Assembly: GCA_029834535.1 (NCBI GenBank)
Contig: JAQMWT010000435.1
Coordinates: forward strand, 151,839-215,838
Source of the DNA: Chrysophaeum taylorii
Lineage: Eukaryota; Sar; Pelagophyceae; Pelagomonadales; Pelagomonadaceae
Direction: 5' to 3'
DNA length: 64,000 nucleotides
Shown here: in pieces, positions 16,223 through 54,299 of the stretch
Layout of the letters: every line of letters begins with the position of its first letter
Position numbering within the stretch: position 1 is the first letter of the stretch
Position numbers and translations under genes: made by a program
The notes under the pieces: generated by a model
Database searches by the model: none
What the model was told of the DNA's origin: nothing
Seen by the model: the letters and a program-made list of their open reading frames with translations, nothing else

Positions 16223-16253
16223 TCAACGGCTGGCTCGCGGGCCTACATGATCC

Positions 16254-18691: not shown

Positions 18692-18732
18692 CATCTGTCG
18701 ATTAGTAGTTAGGACAAGGGTTTCGAAAATGT

Positions 18733-18935
18733 GTTTCCGGTAGGTTTCCGGTAGGTTTCCAGTAGGTTTCCGGTACGTTTCCGGTAGGTTTCCGGTAGGT
18801 TTCCAGTAGGTTTCCGGTAGGTTTCCGGTAGGTTTCCGGTAGGTTTCCGGTAGGTTTCCGGTAGGTTTCCGGTAGGTTTCCGGTAGGTTTCCGATGGGTT
18901 TCCGATGGGTTTCCGGTAGGTTTCCGGTAGGTAGG
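18733..18935. repeat. 11-bp minisatellite (GGTTTCCGGTA)n just before a Rab gene
   Basis: About 18 units of GGTTTCCGGTA with single-base variants (CAGTA, GATGG, GTACG). The array ends 14 bp before the Rab ATG, so it makes up the 5' UTR or core promoter. A minus-strand ORF through it (RKPTGNLPETY repeats) is only a by-product of the 33-bp period. Confidence 0.9.
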
Positions 18936-18948
18936 GAGTCTACATAAA

Positions 18949-22330: not shown

Positions 22331-22377
22331 GTCCCCCGTTCAGGGTAAGGATCAGGTAGGCGTGCGAGCGAGGCAGT

Positions 22378-22950
22378 GATCCTCCAAGCCGTCTACGGCG
22401 ACCTCGCAGATTATTTCCACGACCCGCGGCGGCTCTTTCAGCGCGCCATTCTCACGCCCCGTCGAAACGATGTTGTCGATGCTGACAACGCGCGCATGAC
22501 CGCGGCCTTTTTTTCCCAAAGACGAGGCGTCGGAGTTCTTTTCGGCTGACTAGGCTGGGTCAGAAGACGACGCCTCGCTCTTTACAGTAGAGTTTTCAAC
22601 TCCCTGACAACCAACGGCATGCTGACTTTGAGCGCGAGCTTAAGGTCTTCGCAACCTCGACCCGTCGCACGGCCACTGCGACGGTACCAGATACATGATC
22701 GATCGTGTCGTTGTCACCGAGGCTCCTCCAACCTGTATCCCTTAAGGCCCGCCTACGCCAGACGATCAGCAAGAGCCAGGGCCAGACGCCCTGCGAGGTC
22801 GGCGTCCTCTTGCCCAAGCCCGTCTTCTGCCACGTCCAGCTCTATGTGGCTCCCTGTCGATCGGCAACCCCGAGGATATCCTCTTCTGGGTCGACGACTC
22901 CACGCTACCCCACACGTGCTACGCAATACCGATAAGCCCCCTCCCGGCGC
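22378..22950 (+). pseudogene. Helitron/Pif1 helicase C-terminal remnant, copy B
   Basis: VILQAVYGDLADYFHDPRRL then LTPRRNDVVDADNARM in one frame, FNSLTTNGML in the next, LRNLDPSHGHCDGTRYMIDR and TISKSQGQTPCEVGVLLPKP after that. The frame breaks are at the same places as in copies A and C. The invariant Lys-Ser-Gln-Gly-Gln-Thr block is retained. Confidence 0.75.
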
Positions 22951-22969
22951 CTACACGCGCACTGTAGGT

Positions 22970-23285
22970 GGACTTACTGGGCCAGGTGTGCGTACTGGGG
23001 TTAGAGATTGGGACTAGGTGAATTTAGTGACCAGGTGAACTTATTGAGACCAGGTGAACTTACGGAGGCTTTTAGAGTAAACTCAAAGCTTAGCGGCGTT
23101 GCGGATCAAAGCAGCTTAGATTGGCGGGGGTGAGAGCGACGAGCTCAAAAGGAGAGTGGGGCGAGAGTGCGTGTGGGTTTACGCCGAATTTACTGCGGCT
23201 AGAGATTGGGACTAGGTGAACTTAACGGGAACAGGTGAACTTGCTGGGGTTAGAGATTGGGACTAGGTGAACTTACTGGCCTGCA
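22970..23285. repeat. Subterminal repeat array, copy B
   Basis: Inverted version of the copy A array: units GGTGAACTTACTGG and TTAGAGATTGGGACTAGGTG, ending 23285 next to the element terminus. Confidence 0.65.
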
Positions 23286-29317: not shown

Positions 29318-29459
29318 GTAGTGGTTTTCTCAGATACCCGCCCCTCCTGGCCGGACCAGGGGCTTCAACAACCCTTTCTCCCAACCCGAACCGCGGGTGA
29401 AACCACCACACGCCCGATCTCAGCGTAATACCTCACGCCATCACGAAATCGGACAATCA
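29318..29459 (-). repeat. 3' LTR remnant of gypsy copy II
   Basis: Matches the last about 140 bp of the LTR (from GATTGTTCGATTTCGTG to GAGAAAACCACTAC) in minus orientation. The first half of this LTR is missing, cut off by a (TTAG)n-tailed fragment. Confidence 0.8.
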
Positions 29460-29513
29460 CTAACTAACTAACTAACTAACTAACTTCGGACCTCTCCCAG
29501 GCATGGGAGCCAG
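29460..29513 (-). repeat. (TTAG)n-tailed short element, 3' fragment (part 1, split by copy I)
   Basis: Minus-strand reading: CTGGCTCCCATGCC, GGGAGAGGTCCGAAG, then (TTAG)n. The upstream part of the same fragment is on the other side of copy I (35557 to about 35576). The same 3' end closes the elements at 35903 and 46035. Confidence 0.7.
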
Positions 29514-29845
29514 TGTGGCAGTAATGCCCATTTCCCCCACTTGCCTGCCTGCCACCTGACTTACCCTGATTGTTGCCCTGGTATTGACCTTGCATTTAGG
29601 GGGGGGTGTCATCTTGACACCTTCACCTGCGTTTCCACTGGACCCAATGTACCGGGCATTTGTATTGCTTTCTTGCTGTCTTCTTGATATTACCCTCTTT
29701 TGATTGTTCGATTTCGTGATGGCGTGAGGTATTACGCTGAGATCGGGCGTGTGGTGGTTTCACCCGTGGTTCGGGTAGGGAGAAAGGGCTGTTGAGGCCC
29801 CCGGTCCGGCCAGGAGGGGCGGGTATCTGAGAAAAAAACACTACA
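29514..29845 (+). repeat. 5' LTR, gypsy copy I
   Basis: 332 bp, TGTGGCAGTAATGCCC to AAAACACTACA. It contains a run of eight G followed by TGTCATCTTGACA, a small inverted repeat. Promoter elements were not identified. Confidence 0.93.
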
Positions 29846-29846
29846 G

Positions 29847-29862
29847 TGGTCTCAGAAACGGG
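29847..29862 (+). promoter_or_regulatory. Primer-binding site, gypsy copy I
   Basis: TGGTCTCAGAAACGGG begins one base after the LTR; the leading TGG pairs with tRNA CCA-3'. The identical sequence sits beside the copy II 5' LTR (44916-44901, minus). The tRNA species is not assigned. Confidence 0.7.
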
Positions 29863-29863
29863 A

Positions 29864-29892
29864 ATCGATAGTCTAACTCCCGGACTATCGAT
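29864..29892 (+). promoter_or_regulatory. Stem-loop after the PBS, copy I
   Basis: ATCGATAGTC and GACTATCGAT form a perfect 10-bp stem with a 9-nt loop. Copy II has the same structure with an 11-bp stem (44870-44898) and a different loop order, so the stem is kept although the loop differs. A packaging or dimer signal is possible (inference). Confidence 0.6.
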
Positions 29893-30350
29893 CTCCTGTT
29901 TCTCGGCGGCGAGTCGGTTCGTAACGGTCGAGTGAGTGCGAAGCCGACGCATTTGTGGGTGAAGATCCAGAGGATCACGGGTACCTCCGCGGGGTTCATT
30001 TCATTTTACGTGATTCGGATCGAACGGGGAGCGGAGTCACTACGACTCATTTTGCATACTTTTGCATATCGACTCATTTTGCATACTTTTGCATATCGAT
30101 CGTCATACTGTAAGGCATTGTTGTAAGACCTAACTAGCTCGTGCGAGGCAGACCACCTCCCTGACGGCGAGCGACTACACCGGGAAGGCCGTCCATAGTC
30201 TTCACGCGCAAGGCAAATGCTTCCGTAAGACCAGCGCACCGGTACAGCGCGCAGTAGTCAGACGGCTGCCGGCAATTGTCGTCTGACGAAAAGAATACAA
30301 GTGAGCTGTGAACATCCGGAACAAACATATTATCCGGGCAAATCGCGATC

Positions 30351-31709
30351 ATGGCAGAGAGGCCAATGACAGAACCATCGCAGTGGTTTCGGGACGCACA
30401 GGGGCGTCTGCAACGATTCAGTGCAGGGACTCCGTTTGCGTCTATTGGAAGAACACCGTTCAGTACGCCCTTTCAAGGACAGGAAGCCGAGGAAAGCGGC
30501 ATCGGAAGAGAGGCCAGATCATATGATAGCCTCGACAGCCCCCCGAGCGTGGTCATCCTTCCGGATCCACGCGGCGACGAAGGGGGAGATACGGTTGCGC
30601 CAGACGCAACTTCAAGACAAGGGGAGCCTACGTTCCCGTACGCACAACCCTACGAACGTGCGATGAATACTACGGAGTCATCTCGAGCGGAACCCGAACC
30701 GTTTACGGCGATGCGTGGACCAGAGGAGAGTGCACCTCCTAGGCCACCATCTGTGAATACGAGAGCGACAGATTTTCGCGGGGATGTCGACCCCGAGGTT
30801 CTGCAGACCATCAACGAACGATTCGAGATGTACCCGTCGCAGATGGAGCAAATCATACGTGAACTTGAGAACACCCGCCGCGACGCTCAACAACAACGTT
30901 CAGAAGTGGAGCGACAGCGGATCGACAACGATCGACTTCGGCGAATGATGGAGGAATCCATGCGGGCGCATGCTCGAGAGGCACGGCCAACCTCTCCGAA
31001 TGCTACGCGTGTTACGCCCGACGACGATGAGGACGCTGTATCGGCACTGACCGACGATCCGCCACCGCGAAGTCGACCGGAGCCTACCCCGCACTATCAT
31101 ACTGACCCCTGTTCGGCGCGTCCTCGTGACGAAGAAGAAATACTTCGTGTCAGGAAGGGAGCTGCTGGTATGACACGTATCACATTCTCGAATCTCACGG
31201 GGCAAATTACCAAGGACCGTGATGAGGTGGACGCGTGGTGGATGCAATTGCGGCGTATGATGGAAGGCGGGATCATACCGCATGAAGGATGTGTCAACAT
31301 GCAGCTAGAAGCCACTGATGACGTGTGTCATGCCACTCTTACGGCTGCTGTTGACGACGACGAAGTCGAGGAGGATGTCCTGAGTGACAGACCTCCTCCT
31401 GAGCCACCTCCAGATGAAGAAGTGAAAAAAACACCAGAAATGGAGATGGAGGCGACTGTTAAGGAGCTGCTATCTAAGCACGCCTCCTTGGTTTGGATAC
31501 CCATCACCGACACCTTCGTCGTCGTCTATTTTGCTGGCGCTGGAGGATCAACGTTGGGTATCCGGCGATGCAATGAGCTATATGGCAGTTCATTTCGCAT
31601 TGTCCTGGCTTTGGATGCTTGTCCTCAAGCCCGAGCCACCTTTGAACTCATTTTTCCGAAGATTCCCTATGTTTTGCATGAGTTGGGGAAATCTCATCGT
31701 CGTACATAA
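30351..31709 (+). pseudogene. Gag N-terminus fused to methyltransferase N-terminus, copy I
   Basis: A 452-codon frame. Residues 1-305 match the start of the copy II gag (coiled-coil region RRDAQQQRSEVERQRIDNDR). At MMEG the sequence jumps to IIPHEGCVNMQLEATDD, which in copy II lies about 2.6 kb further on. It then enters the methyltransferase (VVVYFAGAGGSTLG, motif I; VLALDACPQARATFE, motif II) and stops at TAA (31707-31709) where copy II has TAC (Tyr). The stop therefore is a point mutation, not a designed ORF end; the same frame resumes immediately. Confidence 0.85.
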
Positions 31710-32368
31710 GACCTGGTGTTGTCGTATTTGCATTCAGATTTTTGGAAGCACTCTTATTTTCACGCCAGTCCGCCGTGTATCTATGGATCGACTGCCAATT
31801 TGCACTACAGGGACGCACGCAAGGGCGCTACTATTACTTCTTGGGTCCTGCGTCATTTCCGCAACGCACCTTATGTGATTGGACGATGGACACTCGAGCA
31901 GGAACCATCAGTGATCCCTTTTGTGCATCACCAATTTTATGTGCCGCGTATTGTTGATTTCTATAGTATCACGCCAGAGCTGCCGTGCTCGCGCACGCGC
32001 CTACTTGCTTGCAATGTTCGCTTGGAACTGCCGTTATTATCGCGTGTACCACCGAATTTACGGGACCGTTTTGGCCCAGCATTGGGATTTACAGGTGGTC
32101 ACCCGCTCATTATAGTGAACAGTTTCTCATCTACGCGCCCGGCTATCGGCCCTGCCTTCACGGTGACGCGCAATAAGCTCCGCTTAGGACCTCATTTCTC
32201 GAACACCCATCCACTCACGTTGCAGATGCACCAGGAAATTATGACCGTTCCTGCTACGTGGCAATGGGGTGAGACAGTTTCAGAGACAGCAGCTATGAAG
32301 ATGCTTGGCAGTATGGTGCCACCCGCGACTATGACGCGGATTGCGCTAGCAGTGCACAATTCGTTTGA
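31510..32368 (+). other. Cytosine-5 DNA methyltransferase domain, copy I (one nonsense codon)
   Basis: Domain limits within the two ORFs. Motif I FAGAGGSTLG; motif II LALDACPQA; motif IV ASPPCIYGSTANLHYRD with the catalytic Cys after Pro-Pro; motif VI position WTLEQEPSV; motif VIII CSRTRLLACN; motif X GSMVPPATMTRIALAV. These are in canonical order and spacing for a minimal C5-methyltransferase of about 285 residues. No chromodomain, BAH or CXXC is attached. The TAA at 31707 splits it in this copy. Confidence 0.82.
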
Positions 32369-34514
32369 CCCTTCACTTCGAATTTTGGGTAAGTTGCGGA
32401 ATATTGCGACGACTACGCTAGCCCAACCTGATCACCATATTCTACGGTTTTCACCTTTTGCTGTAGAGTCGCGCATTCCAACGCTCGACCCTGCCACTCG
32501 AAGTGTATCATGGATTGCGCCCGATGAACTCTACTCTTCTGCGAGTCCTGCACCATCCGCTGCTGCCACCACCACCCCGCCACCACCTTCAGTTGCATCG
32601 CCTGGGACGGCTTCATCTTTTGCAGGGGGCACCGTCGCCACTGCTGTTATGCAGAGCAACCAAGTTGATAACCAGCCCTCCGCAACTGCTGAAGAAGAAG
32701 GCACCGCGAAAGAGCGACCAGCGTATTTCAATACGTGCGACGTTCCGTGGGCGGACGCGCCTCACGACGAACATGGTCAACCCTCACCGGTGATGCCTCC
32801 TCATTTAGCGGATCAGGAGAGCATGCAGGTCATCCCTCCGACCGTCGCGCAGGTCGAAATGGTGATGACTGAGTTGGGTATTACAGAGCATCCTGCCTTA
32901 GATGATGACGAGAAGCTGATGATGAAGCATTTAATCTCGTATTCGTGGGCATTCTTCGATGATGTGATGAGACCTGTTGATTCACCTGAAGTGACGCTCC
33001 GGTTCAAAGAAGAGAACCCGACTCCCGTCAAACTCTCGCCATATCGGTTGTCGAAAGAAAAGACTGAGTGTTTGCGGATGCAGATTGAAGCGTGGACCCG
33101 AGACGGAGTTATTCGTCCCGCGAATTCTCCATGGGGGTTCCCTATTTTGATGTTGCCTAAGAAAGGTGCTGAGCCTGGCATTTCCAATGCTTACAGAGCA
33201 GCTGTTGACCTACGGCGCCTCAATGCATTGCTCAAGGATGATAGCTGGCCGAGTGTGAGCATGGCTGACACGTTGATGTTTCTCATTGACAAGTTTTGTC
33301 GTTCCAGTTTGGATATTCATTGGGGTTATCACAATTTACGATTGTCGCTGGATGCACAATATGTGGTCACCTTCACTAGTCCTCTGGGAGCGTACAGCTA
33401 CATGCGTCTACCTTTGGGAGTCAAACCAGCCGGAAGTTTGTTTTGCAAGCAGTTGAACACTGACTTATCGCAATGGCTATATCGTGATCTCGTGGCATAT
33501 ATCGACGATATTCTCGCCGGTCACGCAGATACAAAGAATCACTTGCAGTGCCTTGTGCAAGTTATTCCCCATCTCGCCTTGAAGGGGTACAGTGCCAAGA
33601 TCAAGAAGATTCATTTTATGCAAGAAGTCATTGAGTTTTTGGGTCATTTATCTACCCCGAACGGACTTCTTCCATCACCAAGATCTTTAGAAGCCATCAG
33701 ACACATGCCAATCCCTGGCACTTTGTCGGATGCTGACCCTAAGAAGCAAGTGCGATCTTTCCTTGGAATGGGGGGCTTTTGCCGGCGTTATGTAAGGAAT
33801 TTTGCGAAAGTTGCAGGGCCATTAAGACAACTGACGTTGCCGGACGTGAAATTCACGTGGACGAAAGAGTGTCAGGAAGCTTGGGATGCCATTATCGAGG
33901 CTATTGTCACGTCGAAGGGCGTCTACCATCCTGATTACTCGTTGCCTTTTTACATTCGAACTGATGCTTCCGCGCATGGGTTGGGTGCTTACCTATTTCA
34001 AAAAGTACCAGTCGTTGACGACGATGGAAGAGAAAGAATCGAAGAGAGAGTTATCGAGTACTGGAGTCGAACCGTGCCTAAGTCGATGAGGAAGTATGAT
34101 CCTCGGCGCTTGGAACTCCTCGCAGTACTCTCTGCTCTCGAAAATTTCCGATTTTATATCGAAGGTCATCAGACAAAGTTAGAGACGGATCATCGTAACT
34201 TAACGTTTCTGCGGGATTCGAATCATACGTCTGGACAGTTAGCACGATGGGCTATGCGGCTTGCTGCGTTCGACCGGGAGCTAGGATACAAGCCTGGAAG
34301 CTCCCCTGGCATGCGTATTCCGGATTGTCTGTCGCGCAACCCTATCGACAAATTGATCGAAAAAGATGAAGACGGGGAACCGATCAATGAAGCTTTTTTT
34401 GATTTTCCAAGAAATCCCCACCGATATCCCTGGCACCGCTTGTTTTACCTTCTCTTCGGTGACGATGCCTATGCTGACGGACAGCGGACCCACCGCAGCT
34501 ATGGTAGCAGTTAG
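31716..34514 (+). CDS. Pol: methyltransferase C-part, reverse transcriptase, RNase H, copy I
   Basis: A 932-codon open frame in the same frame as the preceding ORF. It begins in the methyltransferase (motifs IV-X), passes a Pro/Ala/Thr linker (about residues 265-330), then a Ty3/gypsy RT: VDLRRLNALL, MRLPLGVKPAGSLFCKQL, and the catalytic YIDDILAGH. The thumb has EFLGHLST and RSFLGMGGFCRRYVRNFAK. RNase H follows with YIRTDASAHGLGAYL, RRLELLAVLSALENFRFYI (catalytic Glu) and LETDHRNLTFL. No RT defect is visible, so this copy could still encode an active RT-RNase H. The frame ends GDDAYADGQRTHRSYGSS, past the overlap with the integrase frame. Confidence 0.9.
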   Translation: MLSYLHSDFWKHSYFHASPPCIYGSTANLHYRDARKGATITSWVLRHFRNAPYVIGRWTLEQEPSVIPFVHHQFYVPRIVDFYSITPELPCSRTRLLACNVRLELPLLSRVPPNLRDRFGPALGFTGGHPLIIVNSFSSTRPAIGPAFTVTRNKLRLGPHFSNTHPLTLQMHQEIMTVPATWQWGETVSETAAMKMLGSMVPPATMTRIALAVHNSFDPSLRILGKLRNIATTTLAQPDHHILRFSPFAVESRIPTLDPATRSVSWIAPDELYSSASPAPSAAATTTPPPPSVASPGTASSFAGGTVATAVMQSNQVDNQPSATAEEEGTAKERPAYFNTCDVPWADAPHDEHGQPSPVMPPHLADQESMQVIPPTVAQVEMVMTELGITEHPALDDDEKLMMKHLISYSWAFFDDVMRPVDSPEVTLRFKEENPTPVKLSPYRLSKEKTECLRMQIEAWTRDGVIRPANSPWGFPILMLPKKGAEPGISNAYRAAVDLRRLNALLKDDSWPSVSMADTLMFLIDKFCRSSLDIHWGYHNLRLSLDAQYVVTFTSPLGAYSYMRLPLGVKPAGSLFCKQLNTDLSQWLYRDLVAYIDDILAGHADTKNHLQCLVQVIPHLALKGYSAKIKKIHFMQEVIEFLGHLSTPNGLLPSPRSLEAIRHMPIPGTLSDADPKKQVRSFLGMGGFCRRYVRNFAKVAGPLRQLTLPDVKFTWTKECQEAWDAIIEAIVTSKGVYHPDYSLPFYIRTDASAHGLGAYLFQKVPVVDDDGRERIEERVIEYWSRTVPKSMRKYDPRRLELLAVLSALENFRFYIEGHQTKLETDHRNLTFLRDSNHTSGQLARWAMRLAAFDRELGYKPGSSPGMRIPDCLSRNPIDKLIEKDEDGEPINEAFFDFPRNPHRYPWHRLFYLLFGDDAYADGQRTHRSYGSS

Positions 34515-34773
34515 TACGCGACAGAACGTACAACCGCCTCAATTCTCGTACGAGTCTGAGCCAATTGACTCCGTCGAACGTCTCCCTTTTGCGGATCAAG
34601 CGGAGGATGAGATCACTCTCGATGAGATAGCGAAAGAACAAGCTGGCGGATTACTACTCGAACGTCGAGCGGATTTTTGTGCGTCTCAAGACAAAAAAGC
34701 GAGCCCAGGAGACCACCCACAGTCTCCGAAAAGAGGCAGAAAGAAGACCGGAGAGACCAACCATAGTCTCTGA
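34366..34773 (+). pseudogene. Integrase ORF start, truncated, copy I
   Basis: Opens inside the RNase H ORF in the +1 frame, with the same N-terminal sequence as the copy II integrase (MKTGNRSMKLFLIF, later VQPPQFSYESEP). After EQA at about 34643 it departs from copy II, and the HHCC and DDE domains are absent. A 19-bp direct repeat (GAGACCAACCATAGTCTCT) occurs twice at 34762-34799 in the replaced section. Confidence 0.8.
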
Positions 34774-34899
34774 GACCAACCATAGTCTCTGGCGAGGCAA
34801 AAGGCTTGTGCCGTGTAAGTCCGTCGCACCGGTCAACCGCGCGAGTCGAACAGTAGCCGGCAAATTTTGCTGCTCGACGAGAAGTTTTGGTGTTCGAGA

Positions 34900-35191
34900 T
34901 AGCCGTTGATATCCGAGAGAAACCGCACCATGGAAACTAGAGGAGACTGACGTTTGTTCTGCGACCGCTTCTGCTGAAGAACGACGCTTAAGACCAGAAG
35001 ACAAAGACGGAGGTAGCTTCACATGCCTACGACCCAACATGGCGGGCTGTGAACCCTGTGTGACTGATTTTCGCACGGATGAAATCGATGTCCTCGTCAC
35101 TAACTTCGGTCTCCATAGCAACAAAGTTCCTGCTGATGTAGCTGAACGAGCTTATCGTACCATTCGTGAGCGTGACCTTCGTCACCCTTGA
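34900..35191 (+). pseudogene. Pol C-terminal remnant, copy I
   Basis: Frames match the end of the copy II C-terminal domain: ERRLRPED, GSFTCLRPNMAGCEPCVTDF and EIDVLVTN. The sequence upstream (34650-34900) has no counterpart in copy II. A purine-rich AAGTAGGGGGC just before 35227 is the likely polypurine tract. Confidence 0.6.
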
Positions 35192-35226
35192 AGTCGAGGA
35201 CGACTTCATCTCAAGTAGGGGGCTCC

Positions 35227-35556
35227 TGTGGCAGTAATGCCCATTCCCCCACTTGCCTGCCTGCCACCTGACTTACCCTGATTGTTGCCGTGGTATTGAC
35301 CTTGCATTTAGGGGGGGGTGTCATCTTGACACCTTCACCTGCGCTTCCACTGGACCCAATGTACCGGGCATTTGTATTGCTTTCTTGCTGTCTTCTTGAT
35401 ATTACCCTCTTTTGATTGTTCGATTTCGTGATGGCGTGAGGTATTACGCTGAGATCGGGCGTGTGGTGGTTTCACCCGTGGTTCGGGTAGGGAGAAAGGG
35501 TTGTTGAGGCCCCCGGTCCGGCCAGGAGGGGCGGGTATCTGAGAAAAACCACTACA
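35227..35556 (+). repeat. 3' LTR, gypsy copy I
   Basis: 330 bp, nearly identical to the 5' LTR; differences include one T indel, C/G, T/C and C/T changes, and the AAAAACCAC end. Followed by the target duplicate CCAG. Confidence 0.93.
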
Positions 35557-35623
35557 CCAGGCTGGGCCGGCAGTAACCGGTCCAGGATCACAGAGCAAAA
35601 ATCACACAGTTGGGGTAGAGGCG

Positions 35624-35903
35624 TAGGTTGGCACCTATTCGCCTCCCGGGCGGGCCGGTTGGCAGCCGGAACGTTCGCAGTGGGACGGGGTATGGCCGGG
35701 GGGCGAAGACGGGAGGTTATCGACGAGTTGGTTGTCAGTCACATCGCGAACTCCTCGTCGCATGGCGACAAGCTTGATGGTCACTCTCCGCCGACCGACC
35801 TTTCGGCGCTCCTCGTCTACAGGCCCGTGATTCCGGACTGGCTCCTGTCGGTCCGGCCTGGCTCCCATGCTCGGGGGAGGTCTGAAGTTAGTTAGTTAGT
35901 TAG
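35624..35903 (+). mobile_element. Short (TTAG)n-tailed element, SINE-like, 280 bp
   Basis: Bounded by a perfect 13-bp target duplication (TGGGGTAGAGGCG at 35611-35623 and 35904-35916). The unoccupied site is at 45901-45913, where the same gypsy 3' sequence runs straight through. It starts TAGGTTGGCACC and ends GTCTGAAG then four TTAG units. No clear tRNA A and B boxes were found, so it could be a SINE or the 3' end of an unseen LINE. Confidence 0.7.
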
Positions 35904-35916
35904 TGGGGTAGAGGCG

Positions 35917-36687
35917 AGGGATGAAAGGGCGTGGATGGCGGACCGCCACTGCGCGCGGTCTTGTGCGAGGTCGTGTGACGAGAACATCGATTTCATCCGG
36001 GCGAAAATCAGTCACACAGGGTTCACAGCCCTCCATGTTTGGTCGTAGGCGTGTGAAGCTACCTCCGTCAGGATCTTTGTATTCTGGTCTTAAGCGTCGC
36101 TCAGCCAGAGGCTTAGTAGGATCAAAGACGCGAGGATCATCGCGCGGTCCCAAATCGGTATAGTAGTGAAGCGCAACTGTATCATTGTCGTGGTCATATT
36201 CTTCGTAGACTTCGGCAACATAGATACGCTTCTTCCGCGCGTTGGATCGTCCTTTCACCCTGAAAATCACGAACTTACCATGTTTGAACCGGTCGCGGTC
36301 CGAAGGTAAATGCAGAGGGGCTGAAGAAGTGTCGATGGTTGGCACTTTCAAAGGCACAATCTGTTGTACAGATACTACAACCGATTCAGCATCATCGTCG
36401 TTGACGTCTTGAATTTTATAAACGACGGGAGAAATCTTTCTAGTAACCATGTAAGGTCCGCGCCAAATGGGCCGTAGCTTGTGGTGTGTCTTAGGCACGA
36501 AACGCAGAACATAATCACCTGGGGAAAACTGGATGTCAATTTGGTGGGCATCATAGTTGAGTTTTTGACTCTCCTGTGCTTTCTGGTGTCGTGTAGTGTC
36601 GTGTAACGAGTCGACTATAAAATTCAAACTTGTTCTTAAAGTCCACCAAAATCTGATGACGTGATTGCGGTAGATCACGCTGTTCAC
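35917..36687 (-). pseudogene. Integrase C-terminus and Pol C-terminal domain, copy II
   Basis: In a different frame from the integrase core, reached by a shift near 36600. FSPGDYVLRFVPKTHHKL and IWRGPYMVTRKISPVVYKI match the GPY/F-type integrase C-terminal domain of Ty3/gypsy elements. A further domain follows: FVIFRVKG, RIYVAEVYEEYDHDNDTVAL and HYYTDLG, a beta-rich stretch that may be a chromo/BAH/Tudor-like reader (inference). The end is conserved in copy I and in the fragment at 45.9 kb. Confidence 0.75.
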
Positions 36688-37828
36688 TCAAAAGATTGTA
36701 ATCGGGTGGTAACTGGGGTTGCTTGCCAGTACGCATCATGAAAGGTGAAATCTTCGTTCCCGGAATGTACATCCTATTGTACATGAATGACACATATGGG
36801 AGGAAATTCGACCAATCTGGCTGACGCTCTTCATCGATCGCAGCTCGCAAGAAGGCTTTGATGAATCGATTGACACGCTCAGTATGATTACTCTGAGGGT
36901 GATACTGAAGGGTAGTACGATAACGTACGTTGAATTGACGAACAAACGTGCGAAATAACCTGTTCGCGAACTCATTTCCATTACCCGTGACTATACACCG
37001 TGGGAGACACCCCTCAAGTAAAATCTTGTCCACAGACGCGTTCAAAATCGAATAGTCATGTTTTGTGTTGATCAGAGCTAATTTCAAGAAATGCGATGCT
37101 GCATCGTACATTGCGAGTATGTACGTGTACAGGTCAGCGCCTCGCAGAGGTCCAATCAAATCCATACCTAGGACATAGCAATCTCCTACGCGATTCGGTT
37201 GACAGAGCAAGCCATGACGTCTAGGCATGGTGGATCGGATCTTCTGGCAAATAATGCAGGAATTGACGAACTCAATAACTGATGATGAGACGCTTGGCCA
37301 CCAATACCGTTCTAAGATTTGATTCGCTGTGGAGTCTCGTCCTACATGGCCTCCGAACAATCCTCGGTGATGCATGGCGATCACACGCTTTTGCATAGAC
37401 TGAGGGACCACAATAAGACGCTGAGAGGCTGAATCGTCGACCTTATACAACACGTTGTCATCAACCTCATATGGTACGGATGACTGCTCGTCTTGATCTT
37501 TCTGTTCAGAGTCGAGATTTCGTCTGATGCGCTTGCATGTTTCATCCTCAGCTTGTTCTTTCGCTATCTCATCGAGAGTGATCTCATCCTCCGCTTGATC
37601 CGCAAAAGGGAGACGTTCGACGGAGTCAATTGGCTCAGACTCGTACGAGAATTGAGGCGGTTGTACGTTCTGTAGCGTGCTAACTGCTACCATAGCTGCG
37701 GTGGGTCCGCTGTCCGTCAGCATAGGCATCGTCACCGAAGAGAAGGTGAAGCAAGCTGTGCCAGGTACATCGGTGGGGATTTCTAGGAAAATCAAAAAAA
37801 GCTTCATTGATCGGTTCCCCGTCTTCAT
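36551..37828 (-). pseudogene. Integrase, copy II, catalytic Asp lost
   Basis: A 425-codon frame that overlaps the RNase H ORF at its 5' end. The zinc-binding part has HHRGLFGGHVGRD and CIICQKI. The core has LGMDLIGPL (first Asp) and YHPQSNHTERVNRF (Glu). The middle catalytic position reads IVTGNGNEF where the family has S-D-x-G-x-x-F, so Asp is replaced by Gly (GGT), one base from an Asp codon. The integrase of this copy is therefore expected to be inactive. Confidence 0.85.
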
Positions 37829-40800
37829 CTTTCTCGATCAATTTGTCGATAGGGCTGCGCGACAGACAATCCGGAATACGCATGCCAGGGGAGCTTCCAG
37901 GCTTGTATCCGAGCTCCCGGTCGAACGCAGCAAGCCGCATAGCCCATCGTGCTAACTATCCAGACGTATGATTCGAATCCCGCTGAAACGATAAATTACG
38001 ATGATCCGTCTCTAACTTCGTCTGATGACCTTCGATATAAAATCGGAAATTTTCGAGGGCAGAGAGTACTGCGAGGAGTTCCAAGCGCCGAGGATCGTAC
38101 TTCCTCATCGACTTAGGCACCGTTCGACTCCAGTACTCTATAACTCTCTCTTCGATTCTTTCACTTCCATCGTCGTCAACGACTGGTACCTTTTGAAATA
38201 GGTAAGCACCCAACCCATGCGCGGAAGCATCAGTTCGAATGTAAAAAGGCAGCGAGTAATCAGGATGGTAGACGCCCTTCGAAGTGACAATAGCCTCGAT
38301 GATGGCATCCCAAGCTCCCTGACACTCTTTCGTCCACTTGAATTTCACGTCCGGAAACGTCATTTGTCTTAATGGCTCTGCAACTTTCGCAAAATTCCTT
38401 ACATAACGCCGGCAAAAACTCCCCATTCCAAGGAAAGATCGCACTTGCTTCTTAGGGTCAGCATCCGACAAAGTGCCAGGAATTTGCATGTGTCTGATGG
38501 CTTCTAAAGATCTTGTAGATGGAAGAGTCCGTTCGGGGTATAGATAAATGACCCAAAAACTCAATGACTTCTTGCATAAAATGAATCTTCTTGATCTTGG
38601 CGCTGTACCCCTTCAAGGCGAGATGGGGAATAACTTGCACAAGGCACTGCAAGTGATTCTTTGTATCTGCGTGACCGGCGGGAATATCGTCGATATATGC
38701 CACGAGATCACGATATAGCCATTGCGACAAGTCAGTGTTCAACTGCTTGCAAAACAAACTTCCGGCTGGTTTGACTCCCAAAGGTAGACGCATGTAGCTG
38801 TACGCTCCCAGAGGACTAGTGAAGGTGACCACATATTGTGCATCTAGCGACAATCGTAAATTGTGATAGCCCCAACGAATATCCAAACTGGAACGAGAAA
38901 ACTTGTCGATGAGAAACATCAGCGCGTCAGCCGTGCTCACACTCGGCCAGCTATCATCCTTGAGCAATGCATTGAGGCGCCGTAGGTCGACAGCTGCTCT
39001 GTAAGCATTGGAAGTGCCAGGCTCCGCACCTTTCTTAGGCAACATCAAAATAGGGAACCCCCATGGAGAATTCGCGGGACGAATAACTCCGTCTCGGGTC
39101 CACGCTTCAATCTGCATCCGCAAACACTCAGTCTTTTCTTTCGACAACCGATATGGCGAGAGTTTGACGGGAGTCGGGTTCTCTTCTTTGAACCGGAGCG
39201 TCACTTCAGGTGAATCAACAGGTCTCATCACATCATCGAAAAATGCCCACGAATACGAGATTAAATGCTTCATCATCAGCTTCTCGTCATCATCTAAGGC
39301 AGGATGCTCTGTAATACCCAACTCAGTCATCACCATTTCGACCTGCGCGACGGTCGGAGGGATGACCTGCATGCTCTCCTGATCCGCTAAATGAGGAGGC
39401 ATCACCGGTGAGGGTTGACCATGTTCGTCGTGAGGCGCGTCCGCCCACGGAACGTCGCACGTATTGAAATACGCTGGTCGCTCTTTCGCGGTGCCTTCTT
39501 CTTCAGCAGTTGCGGAGGGCTGGTTATCAACTTGGTTGCTCTGCATAACAGCAGTGGCGACGGTGCCCCCTGCAAAAGAGGAAGCCGTCCCAGGCGACGT
39601 AACTGAAGGTGGTGGCGGGGTGGTGGTGGCAGCAGCTGATGGTGCACGACTCGCAGGAGAATAGAGTTCATCGGGCGCAATCCATGACACACTTCGAGTG
39701 GCAGGGTCGAGCGTTGGAATGCGCGACTCTACAGCAAAAGGTGAAAACCGTAGAATATGGTGATCAGGTTGGGCTAGCGTAGTCGTCGCAATATTCCGCA
39801 ACTTACCCAAATTTCGAAGTGAAGGGTCAAACGAATTGTGCACTGCTAGCGCAATCCGCGTCATAGTCGCGGGTGGCACCATACTGCCAAGCATCTTCAT
39901 AGCTGCTGTCTCTGAAACTGTCTCACCCCATTGCCACGTAGCAGGAACGGTCATAATTTCCTGGTGCATCTGCAACGTGAGTGGATGGGTGTTCGAGAAA
40001 TGAGGTCCTAGGTGGAGCTTATTGCGTGTCACTGTGAATGCAGGGCCGATAGCCGGGCGCGTAGATGAGAAACTGTTCACTGTAATGAGCGGGTGACCAC
40101 CTGTAAATCCCAACGCTGGCCCAAAACGGTCCCTTAATTTTGGTGGTACATGCGATAATAGCGGCAGGTTCAAGCGAACATTGCACGCAAGTAGGCGTGT
40201 GCGCGAGCACAGAAACTCTGGTGTGATACTATAGAAATCGACAATACGCGGCACATAAAATTGGTTGTGCACAAAAGGGATCACTGATGGTTCCTGCTCG
40301 AGCGTCCATCGTCCAATCACATAAGGTGCGTCGCGGAAGTGACGCAGGACCCAAGAAGTAATAGTAGCGCCCTTGCGTGCGTCCCTGTAGTGCAAATTGG
40401 CAGTCGATCCATAGATACACGGCGGACTGGCGTGAAAACAAGAATGCTTCCAACAATCTGAATGTAAATACGACAACACCAAGTCGTATGTACGACGATG
40501 AGATTTCCCCAGCTCATGCAAAACATAGGGAATCTTCGGAAAATTGAGCTCAAAGGTGGCTCGGGCTTGAGGACAAGCATCCAAAGCCAGGACAATGCGA
40601 AATGAACTGCCATATAGCTCACCGCGTCGCCGGATACCCAACGTTGATCCTCCAGCGCCAGCAAAGTAGACGACGACAAAGGTGTAGGTGATGGGTATCC
40701 AAACCAAGGAGGCTTAGATAGCAGCTCCTTAGCGGTCGCCTCCATCTCCATTTCTGGTGTTTTTTTCACTTCATCATCTGGAGGTGGCTGAGGAGGAGGT

Positions 40801-40988
40801 CTGTCACTCAAGACACCCTCCTCGACTTCATCGTCGTCAACAGCAGCCGTAAGAGTGGCATGACACACGTCATCAGTGGCTTCTAGTTGCATGTTGACAC
40901 ATCCTTCATGCGGCATGATCTCGCCTTCGACTACCGGGACTTCGGGGTCGATACCAATGGGTCCGTCACCAATGTGCTCCACAGCCAC
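37680..40988 (-). pseudogene. Pol: methyltransferase, reverse transcriptase, RNase H, copy II (broken)
   Basis: Frames 40988-40317, 40707-38458, 38564-37956 and 37940-37680 together cover the same protein as copy I. Breaks: a 4-nt loss near 40710 just before the methyltransferase; a frameshift near 38530 in the RT thumb; a CAG to TAG change at 37956-37958. The segment 40707-38458 is open and includes the complete methyltransferase and the RT catalytic YIDDIPAGH (Pro for Leu after the Asp pair, compared with copy I). Confidence 0.87.
39828..40683 (-). other. Cytosine-5 DNA methyltransferase domain, copy II, uninterrupted
   Basis: All motifs of the copy I domain are in one open frame here: FAGAGGSTLG, LALDACPQA, ASPPCIYGSTANLHYRD, WTLEQEPSV, CSRTRLLACN, GSMVPPATMTRIALAV. 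Between the copies most differences are conservative, and the motif residues are identical. This copy shows the domain is one continuous part of the Pol frame. Confidence 0.83.
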
Positions 40989-43900
40989 ATGAACTTTGTT
41001 GGCTCGTCAGCGCAATACGATGAATAGGAGCCAGGTACAAGGCGGAGATCTTGGAGGAGTGACCGATGAGGTCGGAATACGTGACCCTTTTCCAGCGGCA
41101 CATCGCACTCCATCTCGAAGAAGTACGGTTGGCTTGGAAGAAGAAATCGAGTACTCGTCACGTACGCGAAATGAGGGATGATATCTTCCTCGTCTGCAGG
41201 GCATTTAAGTTGGCCTTCCGCTTTTTCAGCAGTCTGATCACCGGGAGGAGCGTGATGGTGACTCGCTCTGATACGAATAGAGCGCAGTAGACTGTCATAA
41301 CTCCACGGTTTACCAACTGGCGTCCAAGTTTGGATATTTCCGTATTGCACAGCAAGCTTAGCTGTCGGGAACATCTGCATTACCTGCGGAGTCGCATCGA
41401 ATGCATCATTGTAAACGACAATTCCATGCTGGTCTTGTGGCGAGGCGGAAGTCCGATTCTTGAGAACTCCAATGGTCAATTCAGAACGCCGAAAAATAGC
41501 TCTCTCTGTCGCATAATCCAAAATCGTACCCAAGAGTCGTAATTCTCGTGCTACGAATAGTAATTGCCCATTCGTTTGACCAACGAAGAACATAAGCAGC
41601 ATGGATGTCGTTGGCACCAAGGAGATCCGGAGAATGACCCATTCTCGAATAGCAGCTCCCGAACCTCCTGGCCCATTTAGAGTACGAATCGTTGGGAGTG
41701 GCTGACGATAGATGATTTTGCCGTCACGATAAAGCTTGCGATACAAGCGGTGATCGATGTAGGGGGGATCAGCCATGCCATCCAAACCGGCAGCGATATT
41801 GGAATATTTCGAACCATCTAACGAAGAGACAGCCACAGGCACATACGTCAAAGAGGCGGATCTCGTGCCATCGTACCTCACGGCTTTATTTTCACGATGG
41901 TCGGTATCCTGAGTGGTATTCAACGCAGTCTGAGGGCAGAAACTCTCGAAATCCGAAGAGATGGAAGGGTGAGCGGCATAACGCTCGGCGCAGTCGTCCC
42001 TCGGTGGCACTATATCCATAGCGACCAAGGTATCTTGTCCCACACGAACAATCGTATACCCCAATACGTCACGATTATCTTCGTCTTCCGAGGGACCTCT
42101 AGATGCAACTCCAGTCACTTCGGTACTTTGCTCCTGCTCCCCCACCCATGCATCTTCAGTGATGACCAAAAAGGAAGGAGGTTCCATGGAGTCTCCAGGG
42201 GAATAGCCTTCTGCAGAGAAGCTACCATCATCGCCCCCAACATCGTCATCGTCATACACGTTGCTCTCCATGAGCTCAGAATACTGCACAGTGCAGTAGT
42301 CCGCTCGCTTAGTGTCATCCTGATCTTCGCCAAGCACTTCAAGCCACTGAGCGGCGACACCATCATTGCGCTGGCTAGGGTTCGCTCTCTGAGACTGTTG
42401 CCCTCTACCCGGTGGAGCCGTCTGCTGTGCCTGACGAATCAAGTTCATCGTGTTGAGTACCGTAGTCAGATCCTCCAGGCGCACCGAGGTCTGAGCGGTC
42501 CGCTGCACTGCGGGCCGCCTTCGGACCACCTGTTGTTGAGAGCCTGCAACCGAACGCTGTTGAGTGCCTGCAACCAGCTGCTGTTGACCTGCACCTGGCA
42601 CCTGTGCTGCTGTGTAGACCACCTGCGGCTGTTGCACAACGCGCGGCGCTAGCTGAGTCACTGAAGCCTGTCCTGCTGCAGCTAAAAGCGTCCGTCGGTA
42701 TTGCTCCTGTCCCTCTGGCGTTGCTGGAAAACCCGCATTCGTCAACGTCTGAGCAGCACGCCTCTTCCTCAAGGGATTGTCCGGCACTGGACACACACCG
42801 CTGTCGTGGTGAAAACTACCATGCCGGCCGCAACTGGGGCACGTCGTATTTGCTTGACGCGTATGGTTATCTATCCCCTGTGGTAGCCAGGTTCCAACTC
42901 CCGAGTCAGTAACATAACCAACCCGTTGGACTGGCTGCAACTGCTGCCTCTGCTGCTGCTGCTCTCTCCTCATCCGTGGTGCGCGCTCCTTTCCCTTCTT
43001 CTTAATCGCCTCTTCGATGTTGGCAGTAGTGTTGGCTTCCAGAATCTTGGAAATCTGGATGGTCAATTGAATGACATCGTTGAGGGTGAGAGTAGATGCT
43101 TTCATATGCGGTGATGCCTGAGCAAGTTCGACGCTCGTCCGCAAGCGCTCAGAATTGAGCCCAGCAATGAAGTGCGAACGGAACGCAGCAGGATCAGTAT
43201 CACGACCTGACATTGCTCGCCACTGGCCGAATTTCTGCACCCATCGCGCAATATACTTATTCAATGACAAATTCCCCTGCCGTAAATTGAACCATTCACG
43301 TTCAAGCTCCTCAACCGTAGCCCGAGGTGGACAAGGAAGCTTCGTCGCCTCTTGCATAGCATCCACACAGTCCTCATCATGCTGGCGCAACTCTTTCAGT
43401 GTGATGGTCCCATTCTTGTATTGTTTCCACATCTGCGGCCGTTCAGCTTCCCATTTGCGATAAGCTCCCGTAGGGGCGAGTTGATACTCGCCTCCAATCA
43501 CATTCATCGCCATTGAGAGTTTATCAATCTTGCCTTCCATCATACGCCGCAATTGCATCCACCTTGCGTCCACCTCATCACGGTCCTTAGTAATTTGCCC
43601 AGTGAGATTCGAAAACGTGATACGTGCCATACCAGCAGCTCCCTTCTTGACATGAAGTATCTCTTCTTCGTCACGAGGACGCGCCGAACCGGGGTCAGTA
43701 TGATGGTGCGGGGTAGGCTCCGGTCGACTTCGCGGTGGCTGGTCGTCGGTCAATGCCGATACAGCGTCATCTTCTTCGGGCGTAACACGAGTAGCATCCG
43801 GAGAGGTTGGCCGTGCCTCTCGAGCATGCGCCCGCATGGATTCCTCCACCATTCGTCGAAGTCGATCGTTGTCGATCCGCTGCCGCTCCACTTCAGAGCG

Positions 43901-44444
43901 TTGTTGTTGTGCGTCGCGGCGGGTGCTCTCAAGTTCACGTATGACTTGCTCGATCTGCGACTGGTACATCTCGAATCGTTCGGCGATGGTCTGCAGAACC
44001 TCGGGGTCGACACCCACGCGAAAATCTGTCGCTCTCGTATTCGCGGATGGTGGCCTAGGAGGTGCACTCTCCTCTGGTCCACGCATCGCCGTAAACGGTT
44101 CGGGTTCCGCTCGAGATGACTACGTAGTATTCATCGCACGTTCGTAGGGTCGTGCGCACGCGAACGTCGGCTCACCCGGTCTTGAAGTTGCGTCTGGCGC
44201 AACCGTAGCTCTCCCTTCACCGGCGCGTGGATCCGGAAGGATGACCGGGCTTGGGGGGCTGTCGAGGCTATCAGATGATCTTGCCTCTCTTCCGATGCCG
44301 CTTTCCTCGGCTTCCAGCCGTTGAAAGGGCGTACTGAATGGTGTTCTCCCAATAGACGCAAATGGAGTCCCTGCACTGAATCGTTGCAGACGCCCCTGTG
44401 CGTCCCGACCACTGCGGTCGTTCTGTCATTGGCCCCTCTGCCAT
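40931..44444 (-). pseudogene. Gag and protease region, copy II
   Basis: The ATG at 44444 corresponds to the copy I start, but the frame is lost within about 15 codons and resumed by the 1,051-codon frame 44086-40931. This holds a coiled coil, a capsid-like region (WRAMSGRDTDPAAFRSHF, a Gag-type interaction patch), a Gln-rich linker, and a Cys-His cluster CPSCGRHGSFHHDSGVC resembling a zinc knuckle. Farther on, AAGLDGMADPPYIDHRLYRK and then RISLVPTTSMLLMFFVG look like a degenerate retropepsin (DGMA in place of D-S/T-G-A). It overlaps the start of the next ORF by about 57 nt in another frame. Confidence 0.72.
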
Positions 44445-44869
44445 GACCGCGCTTTGCCCGGATAATAGGCTTAACCCGAACGCTCGCAAGTCGTTTGTTG
44501 CACTCTTTTTTCGTCGGACGACAATTGCCGGCAGCCGTCTGACTGCGCGCTGTACCGGTGCGCTGGACTTACGGAAGTATTTGCCTTGCGCGTGAAGACT
44601 ATGGACGGCCTTCCCGGTGCTGTCGCTCGCCGTCAGGGAGGTGGTCTGCCTCGCGCGAGCTAAGTTAGGTCTTACTCTGTCTTTGCCTGGTTAGGTCTTA
44701 CGATGCTTTGCCTGGTTGAGTCCGTAGTGACTCCGCTCCCCATTCGATCCGAATCACGTAAAATGAACCCCGCGGCGGTACCCGTGATCCTCTGGATCTT
44801 CACCCACAAATGCGTCGGCTTCGCACTCACTCGACCGTTACGAACCGACTCGCCGCCGAGAAACAGGAG

Positions 44870-44898
44870 ATCGATAGTCCGGGAGTTGGACTATCGAT
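44870..44898 (-). promoter_or_regulatory. Stem-loop after the PBS, copy II
   Basis: Perfect 11-bp inverted repeat ATCGATAGTCC / GGACTATCGAT around a 7-nt loop, three bases from the primer-binding site (44901-44916). Confidence 0.62.
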
Positions 44899-44900
44899 TT

Positions 44901-44916
44901 CCCGTTTCTGAGACCA
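44901..44916 (-). promoter_or_regulatory. Primer-binding site, copy II
   Basis: Minus-strand TGGTCTCAGAAACGGG, identical to copy I and one base from the LTR. Confidence 0.7.
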
Positions 44917-44917
44917 C

Positions 44918-45245
44918 TGTAGTGGTTTTCTCAGATACCCGCCCCTCCTGGCCGGACCAGGGGCCTCAACAACCCTTTCTCCCAACCCGAACCGCGGGTG
45001 AAACCACCACACGCCCGATCTCAACGTAATACCTCACTCCATCACGAAATCTATCAAATGAGGGTAACATCAAGAAGACAGCAAGAAAGCAATACAAATG
45101 CCTGGTACATTGTGTTCGGTGGAAGCGCAGGTGAAGGTGTCAAGATACACCCCCCCATAAATGCGAATGCATCAATACCAGAGCAACAATCAGGGTAAGT
45201 CAGGTGGCAAGCAGGCAAGTGGGGGGAATGGGCGTTACTGCCACA
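44918..45245 (-). repeat. 5' LTR, gypsy copy II
   Basis: 328 bp, TG...CA on the minus strand. More diverged from the copy I LTRs than those are from each other (for example CATTTATGGGGGGGTGTATC in place of the G-run segment), consistent with an older copy. Confidence 0.9.
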
Positions 45246-45576
45246 GGGACGCCCACCCCCCCCCGCCCACCTATTCCGTTGTTCTCGGCGCGCCACCACC
45301 CCCATAGAGGCGGCGAGCGTCCAGCCACGAGTTGATCATATAACTCCCTGCAGGGGAGACTAGCCCGATCAAGAACGGCGGGACGCCAGCGATATTCGCC
45401 GCAGGTGAGCGCACGCCAACAAAAAATGACGCTTCCGGCAATGACGGGTGGTCCGCGCGCCGAAAAACAAAAACTGCACAACGGACGTCGACCATGCAGC
45501 GCCGAGCTCATCAGCCTGATTCCGGCCAACTGCGGGTCTGACATTGACGACTCGCGCTGCGACAGTCTCGTCATTA
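45246..45576. other. Flank without a gene
   Basis: 330 bp beyond the copy II 5' LTR. Short frames on both strands, none with a recognisable domain. A run of ten C occurs at 45255-45265. Confidence 0.4.
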
Positions 45577-45859: not shown

Positions 45860-45875
45860 CTGAACCCCGTGTCCA

Positions 45876-46035
45876 GGATCACAGAGCAAAATCACATAGT
45901 TGGGGTAGAGGCGAGGGATGAAAAGGCGTTGATGGCGGACCGCCACTGTGCGCGGTCTTGTGCGAGGTCGTGCCACGAGTTGAAGCTCCTGCCGGCCCAG
46001 CCTGGCTTCCATGCCCGAGAGAGGTCCGAAGTTAG
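45876..46035. repeat. Fragment III: gypsy 3' end joined to (TTAG)-tailed element 3' end
   Basis: 45876 to about 45980 matches the copy II 3' UTR and last Pol codons (minus). About 45981-46035 is the 3' end of the short element (plus), ending GAAGTTAGTTG. It supplies the empty sites for both insertions described above. Confidence 0.7.
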
Positions 46036-46280
46036 TTGAACCCCGTGTTATGTGAACAACATCAGCATGCATAAGTGACATGCTCCGCTTAAATCTACTT
46101 GTGCCACCAGGAGGTGTGATCACTAAAATGCGACGGTGGTCAGTCGCCGATGATGACGATACACCGGCCAACTCACGGGGCGGGAAGACTCCGCCATCGC
46201 GGTCCTGGGGGTTCGCAAGTGGTTAAGGGCATGTTCCGGGGGGGGGGTCGGTGTTGATCGTATGCGCTAGGGATATGCCC

Positions 46281-54280: not shown

Positions 54281-54299
54281 GCGTGTAGACGCCGGGGGG

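What the first reader, a model, noticed from the sequence alone, without database searches (positions are those of the whole stretch)
31510..40683. Cytosine-5 DNA methyltransferase encoded inside a Ty3/gypsy retrotransposon, in two nested copies
Both gypsy copies carry, between the gag-protease region and the RT, a stretch with C5-methyltransferase motifs in order: FAGAGGSTLG (I), LALDACPQA (II), SPPC (IV, catalytic Cys), LEQ (VI), CSRTRL (VIII), GSMVPPATMTRIALAV (X). In copy II it is continuous with the RT in one open frame (40707-38458). Copy I deleted gag core, protease and integrase yet kept methyltransferase, RT and RNase H. Acquisition of C5-methyltransferases by LTR retrotransposons is known from a few algal/protist lineages (dinoflagellate and charophyte cases). 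The position, and presence in what looks like a secondary-plastid stramenopile, may be a separate acquisition. A retroelement that writes 5mC on its own or its relatives' DNA would change silencing and mutation (CpG decay).
Basis: partly seen in the sequence, partly recalled or inferred. Interest (0 to 1): 0.92.

Follow-up and report, generated by a model that had tools for sequence, protein, structure and literature searches.

The report
Methyltransferase genes inside algal retrotransposons
A marine alga's jumping genes carry their own enzyme for chemically marking DNA, in two unrelated families of jumping gene with two different versions of the enzyme, which suggests that these parasites repeatedly gain something by writing the very mark that hosts use to silence them.

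Summary
Between protease and reverse transcriptase, both Ty3/gypsy copies encode a cytosine-5 DNA methyltransferase domain (copy II: PF00145, 4.8e-7, over the curated cut-off, in one frame with the RT). Copy I's domain has a stop at codon 74. The domain belongs to the family: at least 60 genomic places match the MTase-RT, many truncated. It is under purifying selection (dN/dS 0.067 between two subfamilies; RT 0.037; linker 0.35) and mostly keeps its catalytic residues. Homologues with the same motifs adjoin RT in an environmental protein and an Aureococcus anophagefferens model, so the acquisition looks old in pelagophyte algae; assembly size suggests Chrysophaeum taylorii as host (inferred). 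In print I found a Gypsy-DNMT case in a charophyte and DIRS/LINE cases in dinoflagellates, and no described pelagophyte case. CpG decay shows at most a mild, inconsistent signal. Activity and target are untested. Best reading: each element methylates its own cDNA or new copy during retrotransposition. New variant of a known kind.

The parts
35975..45247 (-). Ty3/gypsy copy II body (5' LTR, gag, protease region, MTase, RT, RNase H, integrase); its 3' end is cut off
44918..45247 (-). 5' LTR of copy II; TGGTCTCAGAAACGGGAA primer-site-like sequence follows one base after it
40931..44086 (-). copy II gag-protease ORF (1051 aa); Retrotrans_gag is below cut-off (E 0.024); protease-like motif recognised by eye
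39832..40707 (-). C5-methyltransferase domain of copy II (residues 1-292); Cys97 at 40417-40419, Glu137 at 40297-40299, R169 and R171 within 40195-40203
   Evidence: PF00145 4.8e-7; alignment A1
38548..39039 (-). reverse transcriptase (RVT_1) of copy II, same frame as the MTase
37956..38564 (-). RNase H of copy II, in another frame
   Evidence: PF17919 6.8e-24
35896..37828 (-). integrase of copy II in two overlapping ORFs (H2C2, rve-like, p58_C); the last 80 bases lie beyond the last base alignable with copy I (35975)
29319..29459 (-). remnant of copy II 3' LTR
   Evidence: 98% to 44919-45051
29514..35556 (+). Ty3/gypsy copy I, flanked by CCAG (29510-29513 and 35557-35560), lying in the tail of copy II
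29514..29845 (+). 5' LTR of copy I
   Evidence: 98% to 3' LTR
35227..35556 (+). 3' LTR of copy I
31488..32363 (+). MTase domain of copy I, broken by TAA at 31707-31709 (residue 74)
31716..34514 (+). copy I ORF: rest of MTase, RT, RNase H; integrase deleted

Best explanation
This is a multicopy Ty3/gypsy LTR retrotransposon, most likely of a pelagophyte alga, whose Pol polyprotein contains a cytosine-5 methyltransferase between protease and reverse transcriptase. SHOWN: the domain, its place, its presence through the family, its purifying selection and its presence beside RT sequence in two further lineages. INFERRED: after cleavage, or as an MTase-RT fusion, the enzyme travels in the virus-like particle with RT and integrase and methylates cytosines of the element's own cDNA (or of the freshly integrated copy). 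The mark would make incoming cDNA look like host DNA, or place the new copy in a tolerated chromatin state kept by the host DNMT5. A Ty1/copia family in the same genome acquired another C5-methyltransferase in the equivalent place, apparently independently, so the advantage lies in having such an enzyme in the particle and not in one lineage's accident.
For: PF00145 over cut-off, collinear motifs. Multicopy: 60 places. Two ORFs of 2129 and 1812 aa read from gag through MTase to RT without a stop (Pfam for the first). dN/dS of the MTase between subfamily L029 and 20 copies is 0.067, against RT 0.037 and linker 0.35. Catalytic residues in the A loci with the residue aligned: Cys97 22 of 25, Glu137 24 of 27, Arg169 26 of 27, Arg171 26 of 27 (27 loci are 26 distinct places). 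Homologues P0001 (35% identical, with RVT_1 and RNase H) and P0005 (Aureococcus) keep SPxC, LEQ and RxR. Copia family: PF00145 1.1e-7 and RVT_2 1.6e-38 in one 1952-aa ORF; MTase dN/dS 0.13 over 69 pairs with dS above 0.5; catalytic Cys, Glu and Arg in 14 of 14 loci read. The genome has a DNMT5-like gene (3e-143 to PDB 7r76, named there 'DNA repair protein Rad8'; that this is Cryptococcus Dnmt5 is recalled). DNMT5a loss removes CG methylation in Phaeodactylum as in Cryptococcus (PMC9998398, passages). Precedent: two other retrotransposon DNMTs methylate CG de novo in yeast (PMC5890265).
Against: No assay, transcript or methylome was available. CpG o/e is not below 1 and the CpG mutation signal is mild and inconsistent, so lasting CG methylation of these copies is not clearly supported. 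The match to PF00145 is modest, motif VI is LEQ and not ENV, and P0001 and P0005 do not reach the Pfam cut-off; an RNA or DNA-RNA hybrid target is possible. Both AlphaFold models are unusable (pLDDT 36.7 and 32.0). All four gypsy copies whose pol region was read widely (copies I and II, L029, L030) have a frame break somewhere. Whether related elements without the MTase thrive in this genome could not be tested.
Confidence: 0.6

Rival explanations
1. The enzyme acts on RNA (element RNA, primer tRNA or the RNA-DNA hybrid), as DNMT2-type enzymes act on tRNA, and aids packaging, priming or evasion of RNA sensing.
For: A profile alignment with host Dnmt2 over motifs I-IV (P 0.002, probability only 14%; DNMT5 was not compared this way); no clear CpG footprint in DNA; the stretch between motifs VIII and IX, where target recognition lies in other C5-MTases (recalled), is only about 50 residues in alignment A1.
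Against: The Dnmt2 placement has weak support in the tree (60/84) and the tree tool warns that these long branches may meet falsely; the copia enzyme shows no such likeness.
Confidence: 0.2
2. A trans-acting weapon or regulator: the enzyme methylates competing elements or host regulatory DNA, as the reader proposed for relatives.
For: At least 60 gypsy places, some open over the MTase, could supply enzyme in trans, and a copia family coexists.
Against: No data on where methylation falls; gypsy and copia sequences both show CpG o/e of about 1.0-1.07.
Confidence: 0.08
3. The domain is a structural or nucleic-acid-binding relic without catalysis, kept for polyprotein folding.
For: Degenerate motif I in P0001, SPSC instead of SPPC in P0005 and L017, modest Pfam scores.
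Against: Cys97, Glu137, R169 and R171 are conserved down to 30% identity in all 13 rows of alignment A1 and in most other copies; the corresponding Cys, Glu and Arg are kept in the dissimilar copia enzyme.
Confidence: 0.12

Closest known systems
KnitGypsy-Dnmt3 of Klebsormidium nitens (de Mendoza et al. 2018, PMC5890265)
   Same: Ty3/gypsy element with a C5-MTase inside the Pol ORF, purifying selection on it (their Ka/Ks < 0.2; here 0.067 between subfamilies)
   Different: Their DNMT is of the Dnmt3 class and their repeats have DIRS-like arrangement (figure legend); here ordinary direct LTRs with TG..CA and a 4-base target duplication, motif VI LEQ, Dnmt class unresolved, host probably a pelagophyte
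SymbioDIRS-Dnmt3 and SymbioLINE-Dnmt of Symbiodinium (same paper)
   Same: Retrotransposons with embedded C5-MTases; two DIRS enzymes methylate CG in yeast
   Different: Tyrosine-recombinase or LINE elements, not LTR/DDE-integrase elements; that paper states that Symbiodinium Copia elements lack any DNMT domain, whereas here a Ty1/copia family has one
Aureococcus anophagefferens AURANDRAFT_67346 (P0005) and environmental protein P0001
   Same: Same MTase lineage (tree 100/99, with a long-branch warning) with RT sequence in the same protein and SPxC, LEQ, RxR
   Different: 30-36% identity; P0005 is a patchwork gene model with only an RT fragment below Pfam's cut-off; neither is named a methyltransferase by its source
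Dam-type methylases of DIRS elements (cited in PMC5890265 and PMC6338049)
   Same: Retroelement carrying a DNA methylase
   Different: Adenine methylases, structurally unrelated

Membership tests
C5 cytosine methyltransferase (PF00145) | Profile match over the curated cut-off | tested here: met
   29.9 bits against 22 for window copy II; 30.8 for L029, 32.1 and 34.0 for copia L032 and L031. Copy I's two broken pieces, P0001 and P0005 do not reach it
C5 cytosine methyltransferase (PF00145) | Ordered motifs I, II, IV (PC), VI (E), VIII (RxR), IX, X | tested here: met
   motif VI is LEQ and motif X GSMVPP, variants of ENV and GNxVPP (canonical forms recalled)
C5 cytosine methyltransferase (PF00145) | Rossmann-like MTase fold | tested here: inconclusive
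   AlphaFold pLDDT 36.7
C5 cytosine methyltransferase (PF00145) | Methyl transfer to cytosine C5 | not testable with these tools
   needs bench work
Ty3/gypsy LTR retrotransposon | RT - RNase H - DDE integrase order | tested here: met
   copy II Pfam hits in that order (rve itself is below its cut-off); L030 by eye
Ty3/gypsy LTR retrotransposon | Direct LTRs TG..CA and short target duplication | tested here: met
   copy I 98% LTRs, CCAG; direct end repeats 91% in L030 and 90% in L029
KnitGypsy-Dnmt3 | MTase of the Dnmt3 class | tested here: inconclusive
   no Dnmt3 sequence was at hand; deep forks unsupported
KnitGypsy-Dnmt3 | DIRS-like repeat arrangement | tested here: not met
   plain direct LTRs
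SymbioDIRS-Dnmt3 | Tyrosine recombinase | tested here: not met
   H2C2/rve-type integrase instead
Ty1/copia (second family) | Integrase before RVT_2 reverse transcriptase | tested here: met
   L032 ORF: PF00145 at 349-475, rve-like 1016-1110 (E 0.006, below cut-off), RVT_2 1686-1933 (1.6e-38); one place of 14 was read that far without a stop
Ty1/copia (second family) | Direct LTRs | tested here: inconclusive
   no LTR pair in the two 9-10 kb stretches read, which may be too short

The most novel reading that the evidence does not exclude
In this genome the two superfamilies of LTR retrotransposon, Ty3/gypsy and Ty1/copia, each captured a different C5-methyltransferase at the same spot of Pol, and these parasites are the main or only source of de novo cytosine methylation: the only host C5-MTases identified among the places examined are a Dnmt2 and a maintenance-type DNMT5 (16 of the 57 PF00145 places were identified, 41 not read), so element-born enzymes would seed the 5mC that DNMT5 then perpetuates.
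Probability: 0.18. Interest if true: 0.88.

Novelty: new variant of a known kind. Interest (0 to 1): 0.64.

Why it matters
Retroelements that carry the enzyme for the mark that silences them are a paradox, described in detail from two algal lineages (PMC5890265). A further lineage, with two unrelated element superfamilies that hold two dissimilar enzymes at the same place in Pol, turns an oddity into convergent evolution and argues that the enzyme does something in the particle or at integration. The host is probably a 71-Mb alga that has been cultivated and has a DNMT5-like gene, so whether transposons seed host methylation can be tested directly.

Tried and rejected
Origin of the enzymes: a 13-row tree with host Dnmt2, host DNMT5 and two viral MTases resolves only the two element clades; the tree tool warns of long-branch joins, P0001 with P0005 and Dnmt2 with the gypsy clade among them. 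Profile comparison of the two element enzymes finds no significant match (E 0.35), though low depth limits it, so 'two captures' is inferred from dissimilar motifs (SPPC/LEQ against LPCQ/ENV) and the tree.

Structures: two AlphaFold jobs gave unusable models; no fold search was run on them.

Relatives elsewhere: in viral contigs the two single-protein scans matched no pattern and the two alignment scans had 40 and 30 pattern matches, none a relative by tblastn. Plasmids, searched with A only, gave none. Phages gave one weak match for A and one genome under two accessions for B. The protein collection gave P0001 for A, then P0005 from P0001, and none for B.

CpG decay: no clear support. Column count: CpG 41 of 98, others 75 of 220, p 0.21; on the C side alone CpG is 22 of 40 against 25 of 89 before A or C, on the G side 19 of 58 against 27 of 95. 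Pairwise counts, which repeat shared changes, give a mild CpG excess (ratio 1.27, SE 0.105). C/T differences are commonest before T (23 of 36 columns against 25 of 89, p 0.0004, post hoc); unexplained and not tested elsewhere.

Not done: 18S identification of the host, the search for P0005 in the genome, and a survey of RT-bearing elements lacking the MTase, because the genome machine stopped answering. Transcripts and methylomes were not available.
Full report
WHAT IS THERE. The window is C435:151839-215838 of an unnamed 70.80-Mb, 697-contig eukaryotic assembly. Copy II of a Ty3/gypsy element runs on the minus strand from 45247; its ORF 40707-38458 (749 aa) is an uninterrupted fusion of a C5-methyltransferase domain and a reverse transcriptase. 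Pfam gives DNA_methylase 4.8e-7 (29.9 bits, cut-off 22) and RVT_1 5.8e-12, then RNase H and an H2C2/rve-like integrase downstream in other frames; the gag ORF upstream is in another frame too. Copy I lies in the tail of copy II in the opposite direction, with 98% identical LTRs, TG..CA ends and CCAG on both sides. Its deletion from gag to just before the MTase has the 6-base match GAAGGC at the junction, and its MTase has a TAA at residue 74.

IS IT A FAMILY TRAIT. A six-frame search with the MTase-RT protein found 72 matches that merge into 60 places on 56 contigs; only 60 of 1683 candidates were scored, so this is a lower bound, and many places are truncated. Of the 20 best-scoring places, both window copies included, 12 have no stop in the first 310 residues of the matched stretch and 8 have one. 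Two stretches read widely carry gag-MTase-RT in one frame of 2129 aa (L029) and 1812 aa (L030, the same place as L012), with end repeats about 9 kb apart.

SELECTION. Nei-Gojobori counts: between subfamily L029 and 20 main-family copies dN/dS is 0.067 for the MTase (dS 1.6), 0.037 for RT (dS 2.4, near saturation) and 0.35 for the linker; within the 20 copies the pooled pN/pS is 0.27 (MTase), 0.41 (linker) and 0.57 (RT). With 27 loci (26 distinct places, since L012 and L030 overlap) the MTase median is 0.10 and the mean 0.18 for 114 pairs with dS over 0.5; the gap probably reflects partial, frame-shifted copies. Pairs are not independent and many copies are dead, which raises dN/dS. Cys97 is kept in 22 of 25, Glu137 in 24 of 27, Arg169 and Arg171 in 26 of 27 each.

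RELATIVES. The protein search with the window MTase gave one protein, P0001 (982 aa, environmental, 35% identity over the MTase, with RVT_1 and RNase H). P0001 in turn found P0005, a 1640-aa Aureococcus anophagefferens gene model with an RT fragment below Pfam's cut-off. All share SPxC, W-T-L-E-Q (S for T in one copy), RxR and PP of motif X. The tree joins them at 100/99, with a warning that P0001 and P0005 are long branches. Neither reaches the PF00145 cut-off on its own, so in them the MTase identity rests on homology to the window family.

A SECOND FAMILY. PF00145 against the genome gave 57 places, none overlapping the 72 gypsy matches; only 123 of 474 candidates were scored, which may be why the gypsy MTases are not among them. 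One place is a Dnmt2 (3.9e-39 to PDB 1g55, DNMT2) and one a DNMT5-like gene (3e-143 to PDB 7r76, labelled 'DNA repair protein Rad8'; its identity as Cryptococcus Dnmt5 is recalled). Of the other 55 I read 14, and all 14 encode one further family of MTase, 72-96% identical to L032 piece by piece, three of them with a stop; they have FTLPCQ (FKLPCQ in one), VENV (VENA in one) and a conserved Arg. The remaining 41 were not read. In the one place read far enough without a stop (L032) a single 1952-aa ORF has, in order, a protease-like DGGAS motif (by eye), PF00145 (1.1e-7), an rve-like stretch (0.006) and RVT_2 (1.6e-38): a Ty1/copia element. A second wide stretch (L031) has protease-like motif, MTase and integrase-like sequence in broken frames, as read by eye. 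MTase dN/dS is 0.13 for 69 pairs with dS over 0.5. LTRs of this family were not delimited.

HOST. Published assembly statistics of the pelagophyte Chrysophaeum taylorii, 71 Mbp on 702 contigs (PMC10366177, passages), fit G000 (70.80 Mb, 697 contigs), and the nearest named homologue is from Aureococcus; the 18S check could not be run. This is inference. That paper's main text has no word beginning 'retrotransposon' or 'transposable'.

HOW IT MAY WORK. Shown: gene, place, family-wide presence, constraint. From knowledge: the Pol products of LTR elements are packaged and make cDNA in the particle. Inferred: the MTase marks element cDNA or the new insertion. de Mendoza et al. showed de novo CG methylation in yeast by two SymbioDIRS enzymes and suggested cDNA self-methylation, with protection from recognition as foreign DNA as one reason; their KnitGypsy enzyme gave no activity, which they call inconclusive (PMC5890265, text parts 1-4 of 7). 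A DNMT5 host could then keep the mark (DNMT5 in maintenance: PMC9998398, passages).

AGAINST. CpG o/e is 1.06-1.07 in the window elements against 1.23 for the whole window and 1.26-1.46 in the two host-gene loci: lower than genic DNA but not below expectation, while GC is also lower. Synonymous columns: CpG 41 of 98 polymorphic, others 75 of 220, p 0.21; the C side alone leans to CpG (22 of 40 against 25 of 89 before A or C), the G side does not (19 of 58 against 27 of 95), and CpT is higher still (23 of 36). Pairwise counts give a CpG ratio of 1.27, SE 0.105. So the copies show at most a mild and inconsistent sign of CG methylation. Fold prediction failed for both enzymes.

PRIOR ART. Searches of the open-access library: C5-MTases in retrotransposons are in print for dinoflagellates (LINE, DIRS) and a charophyte (Gypsy). 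One 2025 paper mentions 'LTR Copia and DIRS' while citing the 2018 work (PMC12344493, passage); the 2018 text says Gypsy for the charophyte and that Symbiodinium Copia elements have none. A 2019 opinion paper says, in one sentence, that DAM- and DCM-encoding Ty3/Gypsy and DIRS elements occur in groups that include stramenopiles, without details in the passage seen (PMC6338049). I found no paper on pelagophyte elements of this kind in these searches; most subscription journals, and preprints, are not covered.

Noticed in passing
L032:3097-8952, L031, L003-L008, L038-L043: Ty1/copia family of the same genome with a different C5-methyltransferase between protease and integrase; I found no description of a pelagophyte copia-DNMT element in the searches named in the report.
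   Followed up: yes
window 29460-29513, 35557-35982, 45871-46037: Short inverted-repeat (MITE-like) sequence with ACTAACTAAC ends between copy II and copy I; copy I seems to have inserted into it.
   Followed up: partly
window 29846-29920: The presumed primer-binding site directly after the 5' LTR forms one arm of a strong hairpin (-35.2 kcal/mol); the primer tRNA was not identified.
   Followed up: partly
window 15449-18600, 21832-23099, 54093-55142, 62490-63997: Another dispersed repeat, stretches mostly 80-100% alike in both orientations, including a 667-bp tandem duplication; three ORFs in or beside it have no Pfam match at 0.01.
   Followed up: no
window 18722-18940: Tandem repeat of an 11-bp unit, GTTTCCGGTAG.
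   Followed up: no
window 231-1943: SNF2-family ATPase ORF (SNF2-rel_dom 4.6e-44, Helicase_C 5e-26).
   Followed up: no
gypsy MTase-RT copies L009-L028: Synonymous C/T differences are commonest before T (23 of 36 columns); unexplained.
   Followed up: partly
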